Shown here piece after piece: positions 5,475 through 63,902 of a DNA stretch of 64,000 nt (within the stretch, counting starts at the first letter, position 1; each line of letters starts with the position of its first letter). Source of the stretch: Paragorgia papillata (Eukaryota > Cnidaria > Anthozoa > Scleralcyonacea > Coralliidae); the NCBI GenBank assembly GCA_035771165.1, contig JAWNZC010000234.1, forward strand, positions 3,297,501-3,361,500. Direction: 5' to 3'. Position numbers and translations under genes: made by a program. Below the pieces are notes generated by a model. That model did no database searches. It had not been told where the DNA came from and saw nothing but the letters and a program-made list of their open reading frames with translations.

Positions 5475-6680
5475 CAATCTCGTTCCCAGAGCCTTCTCAC
5501 GCGAGCCGCGCAAACGTAGGCTCTGGGATAATCCGTCGCCGGAAAACCGAAAAACAGGTTGCCGATTGAAAAGAGCATGCGCCGCCAGTTATTGTTCTGT
5601 GATCGAAGGAACTAGTATTTTTCGAGGGGTTTTAAATTTTATCTGGCGGATAAACTTGTCAAGAACTAAACAGCATTTTAAACAGCAAGTAATCGACGGC
5701 TTTTGAATGGTTCCAAGAGTGAAAGCGGTGAGTAACAAACTTGTCGTAGCCAAGGTGGCACGGCGGCAATACGGCATATGGCATATTGTCAGTGGAACAA
5801 GATGACTAGTAATTTAAGAACTACGTTGAACTATATTGTGTGCGTATGTTTGTTAGATGTTGAATGAGCTTTCATTTGATGTATAGTTCAAGATTCTGCG
5901 TTTTATGAAACTTGTTATACTGTCCAAAATGTGCGAAACCACTGTTTGTAATAATATTATATTACAAATAAACAGGAAACCGACGCAGTTGAACCAAAAC
6001 GACAGACGTTTTTCGATTTTTAAAATATTTCCCGTTTAACTACATGTACAAGCTTAAAATTTCCACCACGAATATAATTTTCCAATAGCTTCTGTACGAT
6101 ATATATCTCAATGTTGTGCGTTAAGTATATTTCAAAAGAAATCTAAAATTCTGTAACACTTGTGAGAAGTCAATTTCCTGTTTATTTGTAATATTATTTC
6201 AAACAGCGGTTCGCACATTTTGGACATTTTAACAAGTTTAATAAAACGCAGAATCTTGAGCTATACATCAAATGAAAGCTCATTCAACATCTAACAACAT
6301 ATGTACACAATATACTTCAACGATATGTAGTTCTGAATTTACTAGCCATCTTGTTCCACAACTGACAAGATACCGCACCGCGGGCAACACGCCACTTCAG
6401 TACTCACCGCTTTCCCTTTCGAAACCATTCATAAGCCACCGAATACTTGCTGTTCAACTGCTGTTTAATTCCAGAGGTTTGGTTCTTGACAACTTTCAGT
6501 CGCCAGATAAAATTTAAAACACCTCAAGGCTTTCGAAAGAACAAAGGAATACAGATTTTCAAATGTTCCTTGATATAAACCACTGTCGATTATCCAACCA
6601 ATGGAATGTCGATTTGAAACGGATTATCCCAGAGCCTACGTTTGCGCGGCCCGCGTGAGAAGGCTCTGGGAACGAGATTG
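5475..6680. mobile_element. 1.2-kb foldback element, ~500-bp arms
   Basis: It starts CAATCTCGTTCCCAGAGCC and ends with the inverse GGCTCTGGGAACGAGATTG. The arms keep matching inwards for several hundred bases (for example TTTATCTGGCGGATAAACTT with its inverse near 6500, and the CTTTCATTTGATGTATAG block). A 6-bp direct repeat ACCACC flanks it (5469-5474 and 6681-6686). A second copy of the left arm, about 490 bp, begins at 63413. The arms are diverged from each other, so the element is not newly inserted. No transposase. Confidence 0.85.
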
Positions 6681-9170: not shown

Positions 9171-10670
9171 TGTCATGACATTGTTTATTGTTTTCCATAT
9201 TAGCTTACTATTGCCTATATTACCTTCAATTTGTTTCTGTATCTACTGCGCATGCGAGTACATACCACGTCGGCATGCAAGGTTTTCCGATGTTAGTTAA
9301 GTAACAATAGAATATTCTTCGGGACCAATCAAATTTCAGAAGGTTTTTCCAATCACATCCCGAGTCAGTCTGAGCAGTCTGACGCAACGCAGTAGATACA
9401 TGTACGTGTAAACGTACCTATTTTCTTAATTTGCAGTAATAACTGTAGTGTATGAATTAAACTCAAGTTGTTGAACTGATGAACTCAAGCCCATTAAATA
9501 ACCATAGTCACATAGACGTTAATACATGTAGCCTCAAATAAAACAAATCTCTTAAAAATTGACATTGTGATTTAATACTATACCACAGACTATACTGTAT
9601 AGCTAATAGCTTGGATTGATGTTCATGTAATAATCAGTACTAATCACTCAAGATTTTGAGCCTTAGACACTGGGGTTGTCCACATTATGACAGATTACAG
9701 GCGAGTGTTTATGCTGAGTTAAAGCTTGCAACTAAATTGTCATCGGACATCTTTCAGATCAAGCCTTAACTCATAACCATTTTGGTAGTGCATATATCAA
9801 GAAAGACCCCTAGGCAGCTCATTTTAAAAACAACTTCCAGACATGCAAGGCCTCAGTCCAGTATATCCAGTTCTACAACTAATGGTACAAGTCTTAATGC
9901 TTCAGTGTCAGCTGCCTCCTCTATCTACTGTCATTTATTAATCCATTTTACTTATCTTTATGCTAATCATAATGGAACCTGGTATAAATTATGAAAACGT
10001 CACCAATATTCACATTACATCATTGCCATTTCGACTGCACATGACTGACACGCTGTTGAAGTTTTGAGTTGGACAACATATTAAACCGTCAACCATTAAT
10101 TTACTACTCTGCTATTAAATGACATTGAACATTCACATAACTGCTATTAATGAAGGAGCAGACAAATTAACAGTGAAGTCTTGGACTAAAAACATTTACT
10201 CATCAATACAGTCTAAAACGTCAAAGACAAAACGTATTGGCATAATTCACTGGCATGTTTATTTTATGGCCATTATCAATAGTCTATAAATAAATAGACA
10301 ATCGTGATTACAAATTTAGTGGACTTTCAAGTCACCACTCAGCCAAAGAAATTACTGTTATCCCAATGTTCACCATAATAACTTTACTTTAACCACATGC
10401 TTGAATTAATTTGAAGCTAGTGTAATTGTCGTTGTGTCAACAAAACCAAGGCAAAACAGCGAAGTTGATTACTGCGTATGCGTCTCTTTTATAAGGAATG
10501 TTCATGTGGAGTGGTTAATCATTGACTTGCCATCAATGGTCTGAATTATATCCATACATTAACGCTGTGAGATAGAATGAGCGTGCTATGATGCCATGGC
10601 AATCATCTGATTTATGTCATAAATAAATCATCATATATATCTTGATCATAGTGGTCTAATATATATATAG
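9171..10670. other. AT-rich stretch without recognised genes
   Basis: Positions 9385-9420 share a short TAGATACATGTACG ... CGTACCTATTTT motif with 23714-23740. Otherwise I see no family-like ORF, exon or RNA. Confidence 0.5.
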
Positions 10671-10676
10671 TTCAAT

Positions 10677-10719
10677 CTACAGACACGGTGTTTCGCTGTA
10701 CAACAGCTCATCAGTGTAG
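10677..10719 (-). ncRNA. Type I hammerhead ribozyme
   Basis: Read 5'->3' on the minus strand, all parts of a minimal type I hammerhead are present in order. They are stem I strand CTACA; the invariant core CTGATGA; stem II GCTGT, loop TGT, ACAGC; the invariant GAA plus the closing A; stem III ACA, loop CCG, TGT; cleavage-site C; and stem I closing strand TGTAG, fully complementary to CTACA. Self-cleavage would fall after C10682. Such short-stem-III type I hammerheads are known in Penelope-like elements and in small retrotransposons of animals (established knowledge). No Penelope reverse transcriptase is seen nearby, so this may be a solo terminal repeat. Flanks are AT-rich (TATATATATA to its 3' side). 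Folding was done by eye. Confidence 0.82.
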
Positions 10720-11690
10720 CTTGGAACAATCTGAATGAATTTCATCAATTACTTATACACATGGTTAGTCACGAGTCTAGGTTTTGGCTCCGTTTTGTCT
10801 ATGTTTCGAATTGGCAATCATTACGTCATCCCATCAGGCCTTGCGCGGCTGATGCGTCGCTTCCCTGAATCTGATGTCCGATCAAGTTGTTTGGAGTCAA
10901 GTGTTCTTTCTTGGACGTGTTTAGTGTGTTCACAAACATAGTTATTGTTCAGTAATGTCGCTGGCAGGTATCTTGATCTTATACACGCTTACAATCGCTG
11001 ACTAAACATGATCATGCTGTGTTGATCTTTAACACCCGAAGGGACACGACATATGAACGATGTACTGTGGAAATACCTTAAATACAGGCAATCGTGTTTT
11101 GTGTATTGCGAATTGTGTTTTCTATCGGAGAATTAGATTGTGTTTTGACTATTTTCGGTGACGAATGACGTTTAGACTTTTATAGATTTTAGCACTGCAT
11201 GCGATGTGATTGCAGCTGCGAGTTTGCATGAAAACTATTGGAAACAAAATCCAAGATATGAGAACACAAGGAACATACATGAAGATGACAAACTTTAAGG
11301 AGACAGTTTGTTGACAGTAACAGTATCTTTATATTTTTGCATTATTATTTATGTGCTTTATTACTAAACGAGTTGTATATTTGTTATGCTGAGTATATAG
11401 GAAGCTTGTATACACATGTATGTTGTAAAGTATGTATACCATTTGTGTTTTTGCCGACTGTTGCTTGTCTTTGAGTTTGAGAACGGCAATGGACCATAGT
11501 AATTATTGATCCATTGGGATTTATAATCAAAGTGCTTTGAACCTTTGAGTATGTAATTTTGTGACAAGTATGTTATCCATATCTTGATGTTCATTTTGAT
11601 ACTGTATGAATTTTGATGCATAGATTGAGTAAAAAGATATTCATCATAGAAACAACTTTAAACCAGTCATGTTCCTCAAAAATATATATA
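10720..11690. other. AT-rich stretch without recognised genes
   Basis: No coding or RNA features are convincing. If the hammerhead belongs to a longer retroelement, its body is not recognisable here. Confidence 0.45.
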
Positions 11691-12133
11691 TGTTATTTAC
11701 CGGCTGGGAGGTCCGTATAGAAAAATATTTGCCCGAGGTCTTAAAAAAGGCCCGAGGCCGCAGGCCGAGGGACATTTTTGAGACCGAGGGCAAATATTTT
11801 TCTATACGGACCGACCAAAACGGTAAATAACGTATTTTTTTACATAATTAGATAAATTAACATAACTGAATTAAGTTGCGTAATCGAGATGACATTCACA
11901 TGATACTCAAAAGTCCAAAGTTTATCGTTCGACAGTCGTAAACAAACTGCCGACATGTAATCTGACAAGGAAGCTTGGAACCTTTTTTTGGGATAAAAAA
12001 AAACATTCAAAACTTGAAGATCTAGTAACGAAGGGAAATCAAAATGCAGTCAGTGTTTTTGTATCTGTCGTGCGTGAAAGTTTGTTAGGTTTGTTGACAA
12101 TAATGACGTAATGCTTAGGCGAGCAAAAGCAAG

Positions 12134-12605: not shown

Positions 12606-13326
12606 TTCTGTTATTATTATTATTACTATTATTATTATTTATATTATTATCATTACTATTATTATTATTTATACTATTATTATTATTACTATTTATATTA
12701 TTATTATTATTATTATTATTTATATTATTATTATTATTATTTATATTATTATTATTATTACTATTATTATTATTATTATTACTATTATTATTTATATTAT
12801 TATTATTATTACTATTATTATTATTATTATTACTATTATTATTATTATTACTATTATTATTTATATTATTATTATTATTACTATTATTATTATTTATATT
12901 ATTTTTAGTATTACTATTATTATTATTTATATTATTATTATTATTACTATTATTATTTATATTATTATTATTATTACTATTATTATTATTTGTATTATTT
13001 TTAGTATTACTATTATTATTATTTATATTATTATTATTATTACTATTATTATTTATATTATTATTATTATTACTATTATTATTATTTATATTATTTTTAG
13101 TATTACTATTATTATTATTTATATTATTATTATTATTACAATTATTATTATTATTACTACTATTATTATTATTATTATTATTATTACCATTATTATTATT
13201 TATATTATTATTATTATTACTACTATTATTATTATTATTATTATTACCATTATTATTATTTATATTATTATTATTACTATTATTATTATTATTATTTATA
13301 TTATTATTATTATTGTTATTAACTTA
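12606..13326. repeat. (ATT)n microsatellite, 720 bp, with internal higher-order repeats
   Basis: Almost pure ATT/ATTT/ACT triplets. A ~60-bp higher-order unit containing ATTTTTAGTATTACTATT recurs at about 12900, 13000 and 13095, so the array has grown by segment duplication as well as by slippage. Its 247-codon Ile/Tyr/Thr ORF follows from the repeat and is not a gene. Confidence 0.95.
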
Positions 13327-13582
13327 TTATGATAGAAAATATGTATAATAAAATAAAATAAGTGAGAAATACTAAAAATTAAATACTAATTTATGGAAGC
13401 TGCAGTGTGCAGTCTTTCTACCAAAAATTAGAAACATTTTGTGATGAGGATAGTGATAGTAAATACAAGTTCACAGTCCCATATACACATCTGCTATTTG
13501 CTTAGTCACTTTCTCCTCTTTAATTAATGAGAATTGACAATATAATGGATTTATGTAATAAAAATAATTAACACCAGGCAAA

Positions 13583-18752: not shown

Positions 18753-19989
18753 TTATCTTTCTTTTTCCACTAAGTATTCTGGTCTGTTTTTTCTGTTAGT
18801 TCGTACTGGGTATCTTCTGATCTCCTCCCCATCTTCTCTTGTTTCAGGTTTCTTTCTGTGCAAATCCTGGTCGTTTCTTTCGGTCGATTCTTGCTGTTCT
18901 GGCTGTTGTAGGGGATCTACTATCTTCTTAAAATGGGACGAATTCCGGGTAATCATATGTCCGGGTCTTACGGCTGTGATCATAGAGCCTTTTATTCTTG
19001 TAACGCGATATGGTTTAATATCATAGGGCAATGAGAGCTTGTTCGTGCGTTCCTGCTTTACTAGCACTGTGTCCCCAATTTCAAACTGTGATGACTGTGC
19101 GTGATTGGTCCTGTCTGCGACATCTTTCATTTTCTGCTTCTTCTTCTCGTCTCGTTCTAAGGCCGCTCCGACTACACTGGAAGACGTTGTGGCGTTTGAA
19201 TCCTCAGGTACTCGTTTCACTTGTGCTTCAGGTTCCTTGCTCGCTTGGGGACCACTTTGTAAATGTGTTGTACCAACGCAGGAATCCGGTAACTTGTTTC
19301 GAACAGGTCGCTTAAGGAGAAGCTCTGCCGGGGACACGCCTGTGGTAGCATGAGGAGTGGTGCGATATAACAACAAGAATTGGTACATACTGTTTTTCCA
19401 GTTCTTTCCCTCTGCCTGGGCGATACGTAGAGCTCTTTGTAACGTACGCATAAAACGCTCCACCTCTCCATTAGCCTGGGGCCAGAGAGGTGTCACTTTG
19501 CCATGTTGAATGCCATTTTCTTGCAAGTAGTCGTGGAAATCCTGTCCTTTGTATGGCGGGCCATTATCACTAACAAACTGACGGGGGTATCCATGCACGG
19601 AGAAGATCTTCTGAAGATGAGAAATAGTTGTTGGTGTGTTAGTAGAGTGTACGATAGCCACTTCTGGAAACCGCGAATGTTCGTCGACGAGGACCAACAA
19701 ATACTCGGCAGTGGGAAAGGGCCCACAAAAATCTCCATGAACTACATCCCATGGTGCTTGCGGCATTTTGGTCATCTTGAGTGGTTCAGGAGGTCGTTGG
19801 TTATTCGTTGCTTGGCAGAAGATGCATCCTGCTATAAGTGATTCAACCTGTTTGTCCATTCCGGGCCACCAAACCTTCGTTCGCAGCAACATCTTTGTCT
19901 TTACAATACCTTGGTGGGTTTCGTGGGCAATGGATAGGGTACGTTGCCTGAGAGATTTCGGAATAACGATCTGTCGTCCTCGCAGAGGG
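18753..19989 (-). CDS. Gypsy integrase (C-terminal part of pol)
   Basis: Inserts the reverse-transcribed DNA copy into the genome. A zinc-binding HHCC module is largely present (AHETHQG upstream, CIFCQATNNQ). The catalytic triad is visible as Asp in DVVHGDFCGPF, Asp in QFVSDNGPPYKG and Glu in QANGEVERFMR. The C-terminal part has the beta-barrel-like KPYRVTRIKGSMI stretch, followed by a charged tail and no recognisable chromodomain. The open frame starts at a methionine at 19892, but homology extends upstream to ~19989 and is separated from RNase H by a frameshift near 20.04 kb. Confidence 0.93.
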
Positions 19990-20008
19990 ATTCCATTTTC
20001 GGTGACAC

Positions 20009-21322
20009 TTAGCTCATGACGTAGTTGAAACAGAGCTCGTATTTCTGGTTCGCGCTGACCTTTGGAGTTTTTATTCCACGTCCCTCAACTGCAGCAATGA
20101 CTTCTTGTATGACTTTGTCCTTCCGTGACTCCTCTTCAATTTCCGATCTTTCCATTGACTTTGGTACAGCGTTAGTTACTACAAAGTTAATATAGGCTTC
20201 ACCAGGGTTTTCTTTAGGTTTCCCTTCCAAAGGGTGACGAGATAGAACATCCGCCGGGTTCGTCTTGCCAGGACGATGCTTGAGCTTAAATTGGTACCGC
20301 TGAAGACGCAGAGCCCAACGTTCAATGCGGGCAGGTGGTTTTGATTTTGGGTGGTAGATAACCTCTAATGGCGTGTGGTCTGTATCCAGTTGAAATTCTG
20401 CACCCACGAGATAAATGTGAAACTTCTCACATCCATAAACCACAGCTAAAGCCTCCTTCTCAGTTTGAGAATATCTTCGTTCCACTTGGGTCAAGGTGCG
20501 ACTAGCGTAGGCAACAATTATTTCATTGCCATCCTTGTCGAACTGTGACAGTATGGCTCCAAGGCCAACAGGACTGGCATCAACGGTAACCAAGGACTTA
20601 TGCTCGGGATTGTAAAATGCCATTGTACAGTCTTTGGCAAGTCCCTGCTTCACTGCCTCAAAAGCAACTTGCTGTCGCTGTGTCCAGGCCCAGGGTGCAC
20701 CTTTCATGGTCAATTCTCGCAATGGAGCGGTGATGGTAGCCAGATCCTTAATAAATCTTTCGCAGTAATTCGCCAAACCCAGAAAGCTCCGCAGCTGATT
20801 CACATCGTTAGGGGCTTGCATATTGCTAATGGCCTCAATTTTCTTTCGATCAACTGAAATACCACTCTTGGATAGTTCGTATCCATAAAAACACAGAGAT
20901 TCTTTGTCAAATGAGCACTTTGCTTGGTTTAAAGTCAAATTCTTAGTGACTAGACGTTCCAGCAAGGCTTCTAAGCATTGATCATGCTCAGCTTCTGTAC
21001 GACCCCAGATAATAATATCATCCGCTATGTTGCGCACTCCTGGAAGGCCCTCGATAGCTTGTTGAATTGCATGCTGGAACTGCTCAGGAGCTGACTTAAC
21101 TCCAAAACAAAGTCTCTTGTATCGCATCAAACCACAATGGGTATGAAAGGTTCTAAGCGGTCTGGATTCTTCGTCAAGAATGAGTTGATGGAATCCCGAG
21201 TTAAGATCAACTTTAGAAAATCTAACAGCACCAGACATATCTTGTAATAAATCTTCCATGGTGAGAATGACATGTCGCTCTCGTTCGATCACATCATTAA
21301 CTTGACGCATATATCCACGCAT
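20009..21322 (-). CDS. Gypsy reverse transcriptase-RNase H
   Basis: The RT copies element RNA into DNA; RNase H removes the RNA strand. Visible RT motifs are VRFSKVDLNSGFHQ (domain A), LCFGVKSAPEQFQ (domain B) and NIADDIIIWG, the YxDD-box position with Ala-Asp-Asp. RNase H shows LVTVDASPVGLGAIL, YSQTEKEALAVVYGCEKF and LDTDHTPLE. RT N-terminal sequence continues to the right in another frame. A 2-nt shift in an ATATAT run near 21310 and another shift near 21540 separate it from the protease part. The stop at 20009 is caused by the shift near 20.04 kb. Confidence 0.93.
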   Translation of the reverse strand: MRGYMRQVNDVIERERHVILTMEDLLQDMSGAVRFSKVDLNSGFHQLILDEESRPLRTFHTHCGLMRYKRLCFGVKSAPEQFQHAIQQAIEGLPGVRNIADDIIIWGRTEAEHDQCLEALLERLVTKNLTLNQAKCSFDKESLCFYGYELSKSGISVDRKKIEAISNMQAPNDVNQLRSFLGLANYCERFIKDLATITAPLRELTMKGAPWAWTQRQQVAFEAVKQGLAKDCTMAFYNPEHKSLVTVDASPVGLGAILSQFDKDGNEIIVAYASRTLTQVERRYSQTEKEALAVVYGCEKFHIYLVGAEFQLDTDHTPLEVIYHPKSKPPARIERWALRLQRYQFKLKHRPGKTNPADVLSRHPLEGKPKENPGEAYINFVVTNAVPKSMERSEIEEESRKDKVIQEVIAAVEGRGIKTPKVSANQKYELCFNYVMS

Positions 21323-21622
21323 ACACGTATTTCTCCGGGTTGATGGGGTTTAGGAGCAACCACAAGATTTGAAACAAATGGAGTAGGTGTACCTGCTTCC
21401 ACTCGTTCAATAATATCTTGGGTTTCAAGTTCCTTAAGTTTCTCTTCCGTTTTCTTACGAAGCCGAAATGGAATCTTGCGTGGCTTTTGTACAACTGATG
21501 GAGCATTAGGAACAGCGTGAAGATGAACTTGACTCGTAAAGCTCCAATGCCTTGAAATACAGCGCTGTATTTGTCAAGGATGTGCTGAACAGCTGGACGG
21601 TGAGGTGAATGGATTGCAGCGG

Positions 21623-22423
21623 TCACTGAATCGGGTTTTCATCTCCAAATAACAGAGGATCCTCAATAGTTGCATGAACAGTGGGTTTGGGAACGTTCGC
21701 CTGGTTGGGTGGTTTAACCTGCCCATTGGCTGTCACAACATTGACATTAATTTGTAGTAAACCCAGCTCTGTAGCGGTGGCATGTCCTAACAAGGACCCA
21801 TGGCTCCCAGCTAACACACATAATTTTGCTGTGATGTAACGGTGTTTGGTTTCAATAACAGTGTCTACAGTTCCTAATAATGGGAGAGGTTTTGCTTGCA
21901 TGTAGGCATATAATCGCATCTTGGATGGCTGTAGAGTAAGAGTAGGGTGTTGTGCCTTGAGCTTTTCAAAATCGCTACTGTCAAGGATATTGGTGGAAGC
22001 ACCAGAATCAACAAGCAATTTTATTGGTACCTCCAGAATTTTAACAGAAATCACCGTCCCTTTCTTTTGGTTTTCAATCTGACTGATATTGGCCACTGAC
22101 TGTGGTGGAGAAGAGTATACCCCAAAGGTATAATCATCATCAGAGGAGGACTGGTCACAGTCCACAGTTTTTACATTTGCACTATTACTAGGATTGCTTT
22201 TCCTACTACGGCAGACAACAGCAAAGTGATTAAGTTTACCACATTCCGCACATACCTTGCCTTTGGCTTTGCAATTTCGCATATGTCCTGCATGGAATGG
22301 ATCTCCACAATGAAAACAGGTGTTCTTGGTCGGTGTTTGGGAATTCAGCTTGTTTTTGGCGCTATAATTATCCGGTTTACGCGGACGAAGAGCGTTGACT
22401 GAGTTGTCAAAATCATGCTCCAA
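21623..22423 (-). CDS. Gypsy zinc knuckles and aspartic protease
   Basis: Two CCHC-type knuckles (CFHCGDPFHAGHMRNC, slightly non-canonical, and CAECGKLNHFAVVC) are followed ~100 residues later by the protease active site LLVDSGASTNIL. It overlaps the gag frame by 79 nt. A single-base loss near 22.40 kb would explain this, but a programmed frameshift between gag and pol, as in many Ty3 elements, cannot be excluded. Confidence 0.9.
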   Translation of the reverse strand: MEHDFDNSVNALRPRKPDNYSAKNKLNSQTPTKNTCFHCGDPFHAGHMRNCKAKGKVCAECGKLNHFAVVCRSRKSNPSNSANVKTVDCDQSSSDDDYTFGVYSSPPQSVANISQIENQKKGTVISVKILEVPIKLLVDSGASTNILDSSDFEKLKAQHPTLTLQPSKMRLYAYMQAKPLPLLGTVDTVIETKHRYITAKLCVLAGSHGSLLGHATATELGLLQINVNVVTANGQVKPPNQANVPKPTVHATIEDPLLFGDENPIQ

Positions 22424-22902
22424 TCCTCCAATTTCATATCTTTTCTTAATGCTTTTCGACGAAGGCGCGAAGAAGAACAGTGCTCGATGAGTTGAATTGT
22501 GATCTCTCGGTTAGTGTTTTCAAAATCACACGTTGAAGCAAGGTGTCGTAATCGAGTCGTAAACTGATCCACTGATTCACTAGGCATTTGTTTAGCTTGT
22601 CGAAATTTATGAATTTCGTACACCAGGTTCTTCTTCGGCGTAAAATATGAATTAAGTCGTTCCATGGCAGTCTTAAAATCTTTCTCTTCCCCTGTATTTT
22701 CCAAAGTGGCGAAAATCTTCTCGACTTTACTTCCTGCTGCGTAAAGAAGAAGAGCTCGTTTGCGTGTTTCATCTTTTATGTTCATGGCTACGACAAATCG
22801 CTCAAAGCGTTTCCTCCAATCTTTCCAGCGTGTTGATATTGATGTAGGATCGGAGTAAGGGTCGAACTGACCTAAACCAGAAAGGTCCAATCCTGTAGCC
22901 AT
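22345..22902 (-). CDS. Gypsy gag (capsid part)
   Basis: Starts at the ATG at 22902 (MATGLDLSGLGQFDPYSDP), just after the 5' LTR. The WKDWRKRFERFVVAMNI and YFTPKKNLVYEIHKFRQAKQ segments are the conserved capsid fold of retrotransposon gag proteins. It runs into non-homologous sequence after MKLEDW, where the other frame takes over with the knuckles. Confidence 0.88.
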   Translation of the reverse strand: MATGLDLSGLGQFDPYSDPTSISTRWKDWRKRFERFVVAMNIKDETRKRALLLYAAGSKVEKIFATLENTGEEKDFKTAMERLNSYFTPKKNLVYEIHKFRQAKQMPSESVDQFTTRLRHLASTCDFENTNREITIQLIEHCSSSRLRRKALRKDMKLEDWSMILTTQSTLFVRVNRIIIAPKTS

Positions 22903-23738: not shown

Positions 23739-25416
<1,678 letters not shown>

Positions 25417-35000: not shown

Positions 35001-35194
35001 ATAAAGATGTTCTACAAGAACAATGGCAAGGCGAATGAAACTTAACTTCACAAGTCCAAAGCTTAGCAAGAAATAAACGTGGTGTTTCCACAAATTCTCG
35101 CTTATGAAAATTAATTATTTTCTTAATATTACTATTTTTAAAATAATTAAAAATAAAAAGTTGCACCCAAATTATTATAGTAAGTGACTTGACT

Positions 35195-36085
<891 letters not shown>

Positions 36086-55595: not shown

Positions 55596-56785
55596 TTAAT
55601 GACCTTTGTTCACGTGACTTACCAAACCACGGGCTAAGTCAAATCTGGCATCACATTGTAAACATATGTATTCCATCCCAGTTGGTTCTGTGGCTTCCAG
55701 TTCATGGATTAACAAATGTCTATCAAATATTTCACTACAAAATGTTCCATTGCAGAAACCACATTTGAAGGTTTTTTCTTTTGTATGAGTTCTTTGGTGT
55801 GATAGTAAGTCACTTGATTGTCTAAATGTCTTGTCACAAACATCACATTTAAAAGGCTTTTCTCCAGTATGTGTTCTTTTATGACATATACTAAGTTACC
55901 TGAATGGAAAAATGTCTTGTCACATATATCACACTTGAATTATTTCTCCTTGGTACACGTATGTGTTCTTTTATGAACTAGTAAGTTACTTGATTGGGAA
56001 AATGTCTTGTGACAGATATCACATTTGAATGGTTTCTCTCCAGTATGTATTCTTTTATGAACTAGTAAGTGACTTGACCTAGAAAACGACTTGTCACAGA
56101 TGTCACATTTGAATGGTTTCTCTCCAGTATGTGTTCTTTTATGAACTACCACGTGACTTGAGTCAGAAAATGTCTTCTCACAGACATCACATTTGAATGG
56201 TTTCTCTCCAGTATGTGTTCTCTTATGAACTAGTAAGTGACTTGAGTTAGAAAATTTCTTGTCACAGATATCACACTTACATGGTTTCTCTCCAGTATGT
56301 GTTCTATTATGAACTAGTAAGTGACCTGACTGAGAAAATGTCTTGTCACAGACATCACATTTGAATGGTTTCTCCCCAGTATGTGTTCTTTTATGAACTA
56401 GTAAGTTTATACTTGAGTCAGAAAATGTCTTGTCACAGACATCACATTTGAATGGTTTCTCTCCAGTATGTGTTCTTTTATGAACTACCAAGTTACTTGC
56501 CTGAGAAAATGTCTTGTCACAGACATCACATTTGAACGGTTTCTCCCCAGTATGTGTTCTTTTATGAACTAGTAAGTTACTTGAGTCAGAAAATGTCTTG
56601 TCACAGATATCACACATAAATGGTTTCTCTTCGGGATGTGTTAACATATGACGTCTTAAACTTGATAAATAACCAAAAGTCTTGTTGCAGACAGAACAGC
56701 TACCGGACTTTTCATTCGTAATAAGATTTCCCTTAGCTTTGTCAGATTTTCCAGTCTTGGTCGAGATCAGTGTCTTGGTAGACAT
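55596..56785 (-). CDS. Nine-finger C2H2 zinc-finger protein with truncated C-terminus
   Basis: Probable nuclear DNA-binding regulator. From the ATG at 56785 (MSTKTLISTKTGKSDKAKGN) nine C2H2 fingers joined by TGEKPFKCD linkers run to TAA at ~55940. Finger 4 has one extra residue ([22 protein letters not shown] spacing x13, not x12). Beyond the stop the same strand still encodes [15 protein letters not shown], then, after a frameshift, [29 protein letters not shown]... and a final LQCDARFDLARGLVSHV ending in TAA at 55596. The ancestral protein therefore had two or three more fingers. Homology upstream gives RLAPSPGLGDKVKRS, but its first codon is GTG at 56836 where two relatives have ATG. Linker and finger uniformity suggests a recently expanded family; a decayed paralogue is at 35.2 kb. 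Confidence 0.85.
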
Positions 56786-63412: not shown

Positions 63413-63902
63413 CAATCTCGTACCCAGAGCCTTCGCCCGCGCGCAAACGAAGGCTCTGGGTTGCCGATTGAAAAGAGCATGCGCCGCCAGAACTAGATTA
63501 ATCTGTGATCGAGATCTTCGCAAATGGTAGGAACTAGTATTTTTTCGAGGGGTTTTAAATTTTATCTGGCGGATAAACTTGTCAAGAACTAAACAGCATT
63601 TTAAACAGCAAGTAATCGACGGCTTTTGAATGGTTCCAAGAAATTAAGAAAGCGGTGACTAACAAACTTGTCGTAGCCAAGGTGGCACAGCGGCAATATG
63701 CAATATTGTCAGGTGGAACAATATGACTAGTAATTTAAGAACTACGTATCGTTGAAATATATTGTGTACGTATGTTGTTAGAAGTTGAAGGAGCTTTCAT
63801 TTGATGTACAGTTCAAGATTCTGCGTTTTATGAAACTTGTTATACTGTCCAAAATATGCGAACTGCGAACAACTGTTCGTAATAATATTATATTACAAAC
63901 AA
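63413..63902 (+). mobile_element. Partial second copy of the 1.2-kb foldback (left arm)
   Basis: CAATCTCGTACCCAGAGCC, then GATTGAAAAGAGCATGCGCC through ATTATATTACAAA matches 5475-5970 with small indels. Homology stops at 63902, where unrelated GC-richer sequence starts (ACACCTGGGTCAGGTG hairpin) and continues to the window edge. It is truncated or rearranged. Confidence 0.88.

What the first reader, a model, noticed from the sequence alone, without database searches (positions are those of the whole stretch)
10677..10719. A complete type I hammerhead ribozyme with no obvious host element
All invariant core bases (CTGATGA, GAA-A, cleavage C) and three pairing stems are present in 43 nt on the minus strand, including a 5/5-bp stem I. 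Known genomic hammerheads of this shape lie in Penelope-like or retrozyme-type elements, usually as tandem or terminal pairs. Here it is alone, 1 kb from a giant composite transposon. It may process an unknown small circular or retro-RNA.
Basis: partly seen in the sequence, partly recalled or inferred. Interest (0 to 1): 0.85.

Follow-up and report, generated by a model that had tools for sequence, protein, structure and literature searches.

The report
Truncated copy of a ribozyme-bearing retroelement
The small self-cutting RNA motif is real, but it is not a loner: it is a shortened copy of a very abundant genomic parasite of a known kind, and the ends of its copies suggest how such parasites enter the genome at runs of TATATA.

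Summary
Window 10677-10719 (minus) is a complete type I hammerhead. Core and three stems are present, predicted cleavage is after C10682, and it is beyond chance: 0 of 4000 simulated windows for the compact Watson-Crick form, and 38.4 bits with a model built only from viral hammerheads. No Rfam cut-off is reached.

The interpretation does not. The motif occurs 5887 times (up to 3 mismatches) in its own 618-Mb genome, reversed control 0, often in tandem at 277 bp. It belongs to a metazoan non-LTR retrozyme, a known kind (PMC7229834). The window copy is a 100-nt, 5'-truncated insertion (10664-10763).

Less expected: in 61 sampled loci plus the window, 61 of 68 copies align to unit position 14-19 at the 3' end. 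After unit base 12 come TATATA at 51 of 61 ends, but TATGTA at 50 of 51 internal repeats. 5' ends vary. This fits target-primed reverse transcription of circular or multimeric RNA from TATATA ends. A Penelope-like element with its own hammerhead also runs into (TA)n in 25 of 36 sampled copies and is the likely helper.

The parts
10664..10763 (-). 5'-truncated retrozyme copy, 100 nt; unit positions 196 to 277 then 1 to 18 (position 1 = first base after the cleavage site)
   Evidence: 99 of 100 nt equal to a 277-nt tandem unit of the same genome (L245); the one difference (A for G) lies in the TATATA of the 3' junction
10677..10719 (-). type I hammerhead ribozyme (stems I, II, III and core)
   Evidence: 5887 copies with up to 3 mismatches in own genome
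10682..10682 (-). C17, predicted cleavage 3' of this base (between 10682 and 10681)
   Evidence: GUC triplet in the hammerhead alignment; cleavage itself not tested
10724..10727 (-). outer stem I, 5' strand GTTC
   Evidence: complementary to GAAC 10670-10673 across a 4/3 internal loop; read, placed by string match
10670..10673 (-). outer stem I, 3' strand GAAC; last bases of the element that cannot come from a TA tract
   Evidence: unit positions 9-12; junction counts
10683..10691 (-). helix III element ACACCGTGT, near-palindrome able to form a dimeric helix III
   Evidence: self-duplex -7.4 kcal/mol, no stable hairpin alone
10659..10669 (-). TATATATATAT at the 3' junction (target site or 3' tail)
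   Evidence: stands where the unit has TATGTACGC; TATATA at 51 of 61 sampled standard 3' junctions

Best explanation
The feature is a probably recent, 5'-truncated insertion of a high-copy metazoan non-LTR retrozyme. Full units are 277 nt, occur in tandem and carry one type I hammerhead each. Proposed cycle: tandem loci are transcribed; hammerheads, perhaps paired as dimers through the nearly palindromic helix III, cut the RNA into 277-nt units; these are circularised; a reverse transcriptase, most likely of the Penelope-like element in the same genome, nicks a (TA)n tract and uses its 3' end, paired to UAUGUA 13-18 nt after the cleavage site, to prime copying through the ribozyme and round the circle. 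Copying stops at variable points, so inserts have a fixed 3' end and a variable 5' end. The ribozyme lies next to the fixed end, so even a 100-nt insert keeps a complete hammerhead; that is why it looks like a lone ribozyme. Shown by computation: family, unit, copy number, truncation, junction bias. Inferred: age, transcription, cleavage, circles, priming, helper.
For: Copies: 5887, reversed control 0; generic type I pattern 6409 against 8. Tandem spacing 277. The window copy equals the unit over positions 196-277 and 1-12, 94 of 94 nt. Junctions (61 loci plus window): 61 of 68 elements end at unit 14-19; after unit base 12 come TATATA in 51 of 61, against TATGTA in 50 of 51 internal places; (TA)4 at the 3' junction in 56 of 61 and in the 5' flank in 44 of 61, against 175 of 5398 control windows; lengths 47-1953 nt. 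40 elements with a TA 5' flank share on average 1.7 nt with it, null 0.34. All 61 read across the cleavage site, so the template was joined or uncut there. Unit RNA folds better than 200 of 200 shuffles, z -4.0. Penelope-like hammerhead motif: 3105 copies; 25 of 36 sampled copies go directly into (TA)n at one of two points. 6 of 40 retrozyme loci hold that motif. The fold predicted for a database relative of its product is most like telomerase RT.
Against: Sampling: 41 of the 61 loci were picked because they hold an exact hammerhead (contigs C1-C4), which partly forces reading across the cleavage site; the other 20 were picked for the Penelope-like motif. A sample chosen by an inner part of the unit could not be drawn. 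Segmental duplicates lower the independent counts (for example L276 and L277). 7 of 68 elements have other 3' ends by alignment. 5' position 82 recurs 10 times, which also weighs on the shared-base test. The window copy has no TA tract at its 5' side and no clear target duplication (longest word shared by the flanks 6 nt). (TA)n could be a tail made by the enzyme. The monomer's predicted best fold is not the hammerhead, whereas 36 of 39 viral ones, chosen for good stems, fold so. The dimer energy gain is no larger than for viral controls, and family 2 does not give the double hammerhead as best fold. RNAalifold does not recover the fold. No RNA data.
Confidence: 0.8

Rival explanations
1. Same retrozyme family, but the (TA)n at the 3' side is a tail added by the reverse transcriptase (slippage on the UAUGUA end), not the target; insertion sites are otherwise unspecific.
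For: Several copies, including the window copy, L249, L254 and L260, have a TA run only on the 3' side.
Against: 44 of 61 copies have (TA)4 also in the last 25 nt of the 5' flank, against 175 of 5398 control windows, and 5' junctions share bases with the tract above the null.
Confidence: 0.25
2. Solo remnant: the window copy arose by recombination between two hammerheads of a longer tandem array, or by microsatellite-mediated rearrangement, not by truncated reverse transcription.
For: TA tracts on both sides of many copies would favour such events.
Against: 5' ends of 68 elements lie at 42 different unit positions while 61 of 68 3' ends lie at unit 14-19; recombination between identical units would not scatter one end only.
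Confidence: 0.08
3. The motif belongs to a Penelope-like element itself (a pseudo-LTR remnant).
For: A Penelope-like element with its own minimal hammerhead is abundant in the genome and often runs into (TA)n too.
Against: The window has no copy of that motif with up to 3 mismatches; the two hammerheads differ in sequence; the 277-nt unit occurs in tandem with no long reading frame (longest stop-free run 89 and 64 codons round the circle).
Confidence: 0.05
4. Chance match to the hammerhead consensus.
For: Rfam scores are below the gathering cut-offs; the single-copy fold is not the hammerhead; the bare core spacing is not rare.
Against: 5887 copies, 38.4 bits with an independent model, 0 of 4000 simulated windows for the compact Watson-Crick form.
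Confidence: 0.01

Closest known systems
Metazoan non-LTR retrozymes (Cervera and de la Pena 2020, PMC7229834; parts 1-4 of 6 read)
   Same: Type I hammerhead, unit of 277 nt (published 170-400), 47% G+C, tandem copies, thousands of copies, self-paired unit RNA, Penelope-like elements in the same genome.
   Different: The paper proposes tandem cDNA and leaves priming open (DNA target or small RNA). Here a fixed 3' end with variable 5' truncation and a (TA)n junction is seen in the sample. No clear target duplication was found for the window copy.
Penelope-like elements with minimal hammerheads (described in PMC7761336 and PMC6155905, passages seen; the original 2014 paper is not held)
   Same: Type I hammerhead; many 3' junctions into (TA)n in this genome; said to be able to cleave as dimers.
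   Different: The window element codes for nothing, its unit is 277 nt, and its hammerhead has a three-pair helix III and an outer stem I with internal loop.
Amphibian satellite hammerheads (newt, axolotl; PMC7229834 part 3, PMC6155905 passages)
   Same: Very short helix III with self-complementary part; weak as monomer there, predicted weak here.
   Different: Sequence and unit length (330-350 bp there).
Plant LTR retrozymes (PMC4918200, passages seen)
   Same: Ribozyme-cut circular RNA as intermediate, non-autonomous.
   Different: Type III hammerhead in LTRs, about 700 bp, Gypsy helper proposed.

Membership tests
Type I hammerhead ribozyme | Unmutated core and closed pairs beside the core | tested here: met
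   rules from the methods of PMC3088659
Type I hammerhead ribozyme | Rfam gathering score | tested here: not met
   no family in the window; RF00008 16.1 of 48.5 bits; a search with RF00163 alone did not complete
Type I hammerhead ribozyme | Match to a covariance model of independent type I hammerheads | tested here: met
   38.4 bits, E 2.9e-9; 39 training sequences from IMG/VR, chosen for compact stems from 87 descriptor hits
Type I hammerhead ribozyme | Compensatory changes among copies | tested here: met
   4 of 14 pairs changed on both sides, 24 distinct rows of 117; 8 of 500 shuffles reach this, and 301 of 500 reach the number of further pair types; few events, mainly family 2 in L272; alignment fitted to the model
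Type I hammerhead ribozyme | Loop I - loop II tertiary contacts | tested here: inconclusive
   internal loop in stem I and small loop II are present in the sequence; contacts not modelled
Type I hammerhead ribozyme | Self-cleavage | not testable with these tools
   needs in vitro transcription
Metazoan non-LTR retrozyme | Unit of about 150-450 bp in tandem, dimers to large arrays | tested here: met
   277 bp; 25 of 46 spacings exactly 277, 30 of 46 at 275-281; arrays in L251, L266, L268. Not met by the window copy itself, which is a truncated monomer
Metazoan non-LTR retrozyme | G+C below 50% | tested here: met
   unit 47.3%
Metazoan non-LTR retrozyme | Highly self-paired unit RNA | tested here: met
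   -93.1 kcal/mol, z -4.0; 70% paired as circle
Metazoan non-LTR retrozyme | No LTR, PBS or PPT | not tested
   no search for PBS or PPT was made
Metazoan non-LTR retrozyme | Target site duplication longer than 4 bp, when present | tested here: inconclusive
   none clear for the window copy; TA tracts hide it elsewhere
Metazoan non-LTR retrozyme | Linear and circular unit-length RNA | not testable with these tools
   no transcriptome held
Penelope-like element | RT and GIY-YIG coding frame with pseudo-LTRs | tested here: not met
   the 100-nt copy and the 277-nt unit are too short to hold it; no Penelope-like hammerhead motif in the window. The Pfam scan of 10 nearby frames (none above cut-off) is weak evidence, since Pfam did not recognise the genome's Penelope-like frames either

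The most novel reading that the evidence does not exclude
Retrozyme circles are mobilised by a Penelope-like reverse transcriptase through direct base pairing of a nicked (TA)n tract with a fixed UAUGUA site next to the ribozyme, and the 5' end is closed by 1-2 nt of shared TA sequence. Both the parasite and its helper would be guided by the same target-template pairing, which would answer how metazoan retrozyme circles are primed.
Probability: 0.4. Interest if true: 0.65.

Novelty: new member of a known kind. Interest (0 to 1): 0.45.

Why it matters
The element type is known, but how its RNA is primed for insertion was left open in the paper that named it (PMC7229834, part 4). Thousands of copies, with a fixed 3' end in the sample and a sequence signature that separates target from template, make that question testable by computation and at the bench. 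It also warns that an isolated, perfect hammerhead in an animal genome can simply be the 3' stub of such an element.

Tried and rejected
Rejected or judged unlikely: chance; a novel stand-alone ribozyme; a gene-linked ribozyme (10 nearby frames without a Pfam family above its cut-off; weak evidence); a Penelope-like remnant; a solo made by recombination.

Led nowhere: Rfam at gathering level; minimum-energy folding of the single motif and RNAalifold; Pfam on two Penelope-like frames and four relatives; a profile search of solved structures by sequence (none); naming the host (searches gave only distant named relatives; that it is an animal is inferred from its zinc-finger and receptor genes). 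The energy comparison of dimer and monomer did not separate this family from viral controls. Papers: nothing on (TA)n-primed retrozyme insertion was seen in the listings or in the passages read; the library lacks most subscription journals, and two relevant papers were not held.

Not done: a sample of units chosen without the hammerhead, a count of family 2, and RF00163 over the genome, because the genome machine did not answer.

Dropped before counts: one search left out alignments under 90% identity, overlapping alignments, elements within 60 nt of a locus end and those beside N; one search left out motif hits with under 150 nt downstream and identical copies; the viral model used 39 of 87 descriptor hits.

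Full report
What is there. On the minus strand of the window, 10719 to 10677 read as a complete type I hammerhead with the base assignments given in the observation check. An outer stem (GTTC 10727-10724 with GAAC 10673-10670) extends stem I across a 4/3 internal loop. A descriptor search finds this one site in 64 kb. In 4000 order-3 Markov windows the compact Watson-Crick form was found 0 times and the form with any loop length 2 times; with G-U pairs allowed, 167 of 4000 windows hit at stems >=4/>=4/>=2 and 14 of 4000 at >=5/>=5/>=3. The core spacing alone is not rare. Rfam's cut-offs are not reached. A covariance model made from 39 type I hammerheads of IMG/VR contigs, picked for compact stems from 87 descriptor hits in 70 of 240 fetched loci, gives 38.4 bits and E 2.9e-9; the next match in the window has 10.2 bits.

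What it belongs to. The window lies in a 617.9-Mb assembly of 473 contigs. The 43-nt motif occurs there 5887 times with up to 3 mismatches, the reversed control 0 times. A generic type I pattern gives 6409 matches against 8 for its reversed control; in the listed rows nearly all look like this family or decayed copies of it (my reading), with a few clearly different sequences. Of the 100 places listed, 38 have no same-strand copy within 1 kb; of 46 adjacent same-strand spacings under 1 kb, 25 are exactly 277 and 30 lie at 275-281. These 100 are all exact matches on contigs C1 to C6, because the tool lists best matches first. One tandem unit (L245, 277 nt, 47% G+C) was used as reference. The window copy covers unit 196-277 and 1-18 (10763-10664) and is identical over the 94 nt up to unit base 12. 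A second, diverged family with a 188-nt spacing sits in L272; its stem I (CTGCA/TGCAG) and helix III (ACG/CGT) keep pairing through double changes, though not in every copy. The unit RNA is strongly self-paired (z -4.0; 70% paired as a circle). All this fits the metazoan non-LTR retrozymes of PMC7229834 (parts 1-4 of 6 read).

How copies end. The sample is 61 loci (L245 and L249-L288, picked for an exact hammerhead; L289-L308, picked for the Penelope-like motif) and the window. 68 elements of at least 90% identity had 60 nt of flank on both sides. By alignment, 61 of 68 have their 3' end at unit 14-19. What follows unit base 12 is TATATA in 51 of these 61, while inside tandem arrays it is TATGTA in 50 of 51. 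TA repeats lie at the 3' junction in 56 of 61 and in the 5' flank in 44 of 61, against 175 of 5398 control windows from the same loci and 0.9% of sampled places in the window. The 68 5' ends occupy 42 different unit positions, with one favoured position (82, 10 times). Lengths of the 61 run from 47 to 1953 nt. Of 40 elements whose 5' flank ends in a TA run, 35 share at least one base and 22 at least two with it; the mean is 1.7 nt, and random junctions would give 0.34. Recurrent 5' positions and segmental duplicates make these counts less than independent. Seven elements end elsewhere by alignment (unit 103, 146, 233, 267, 273, 276, 277); for the last of these, in L251, the printed sequence goes on to the usual end, so it is a limit of the search.

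Reading. A fixed 3' end, variable 5' truncation and target-like bases at the 3' junction are the marks of target-primed reverse transcription (established for LINE elements; recalled). Since all 61 standard copies run across the cleavage site, the template was circular or uncut multimeric RNA; several laps in one insert fit a circle. For 41 loci this crossing is partly a result of the choice by hammerhead. The TATATA end of a nicked TA tract can pair with UAUGUA at unit 13-18 with one G-T wobble, which would explain why the G is absent at most such ends (51 of 61 read TATATA). The ribozyme is the last thing before this site, so any insert longer than about 55 nt keeps a whole hammerhead. That accounts for the lone complete ribozyme without a special function.

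Helper. A Penelope-like hammerhead motif has 3105 copies in the genome. Two loci (L289, L290, near-duplicates) contain frames with YRDD and a YIG...R...H block. A database search with the L289 frame gives 3615 relatives among 7991 scored candidates; in 20 aligned relatives YRDDG is invariant, as are the Y and G of the YIG block, its I being kept in at least 90%. Pfam does not recognise them. The fold predicted for one relative, P0002 (mean pLDDT 83.7), is most like telomerase reverse transcriptase in the PDB (E 1.6e-8, TM 0.35 to 0.41; DRT and LINE-1 enzymes follow); telomerase is the known relative of Penelope-like enzymes (recalled). Of 36 sampled motif copies, 14 run into (TA)n at one point and 11 at a second; 11 were placed in neither class. 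The motif lies in 6 of 40 fetched retrozyme loci, 10 hits; 0.75 would be expected from the genome count, but that count allowed 3 mismatches and the local search 6, so the excess is overstated. Both prefer TA tracts, so nearness alone does not prove the helper role.

Dimer. The monomer's predicted best fold is not the hammerhead at 43, 65, 85 or 86 nt, unlike 36 of 39 viral ones, which had been chosen for good stems. Helix III (ACACCGTGT) is a near-palindrome, and two 65-nt copies cofold into the double hammerhead as best structure. The 43-nt form and family 2 do not, and the energy gain (-7.6 kcal/mol for the 65-nt form, -10.4 for family 2) is within the range of the viral controls (mean -6.2, lowest -13.6). 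So dimeric action, as known for newts, is possible but open; if so, the lone window copy would cleave little by itself.

Verdict. Real ribozyme, known element type, ordinary truncated copy; the junction pattern of its family is the interesting part.

Noticed in passing
L272:1-970 (own genome): A second retrozyme family with 188-nt spacing, stem I CTGCA/TGCAG, 3' end GATTGAATAT followed by (TA)n; genome-wide count not obtained.
   Followed up: partly
own genome, contigs C1-C11 (list): Penelope-like hammerhead motifs often occur as back-to-back inverted pairs starting about 45-60 bp apart.
   Followed up: no
own genome C1:111671, C1:722073, C1:745237, C1:3643807: Further type I hammerhead sequences unlike both families; fetching them failed.
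   Followed up: no
5618-5937 and 63541-63862: Direct repeats 57.9 kb apart, 100% and 95% identical in the two blocks listed; a 90% inverted copy of the last part at 6206-6359.
   Followed up: no
11688-11835: Palindromic element, 55-nt arms 3 nt apart, 84% complementary, with further 15-nt arms outside; MITE-like.
   Followed up: no
12611-13330: Long TTA-rich tandem array.
   Followed up: no
35178-35906 and 55753-56642: Two related tandem arrays with 84-89 bp units; the second codes for C2H2 zinc fingers.
   Followed up: partly
18753-22510: Gypsy-like pol frames (integrase, RT, RNase H, protease) on the minus strand.
   Followed up: partly
24209-25044: 287-nt inverted repeat (94%, 262 nt between arms) with TA tracts just outside both arms.
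   Followed up: no
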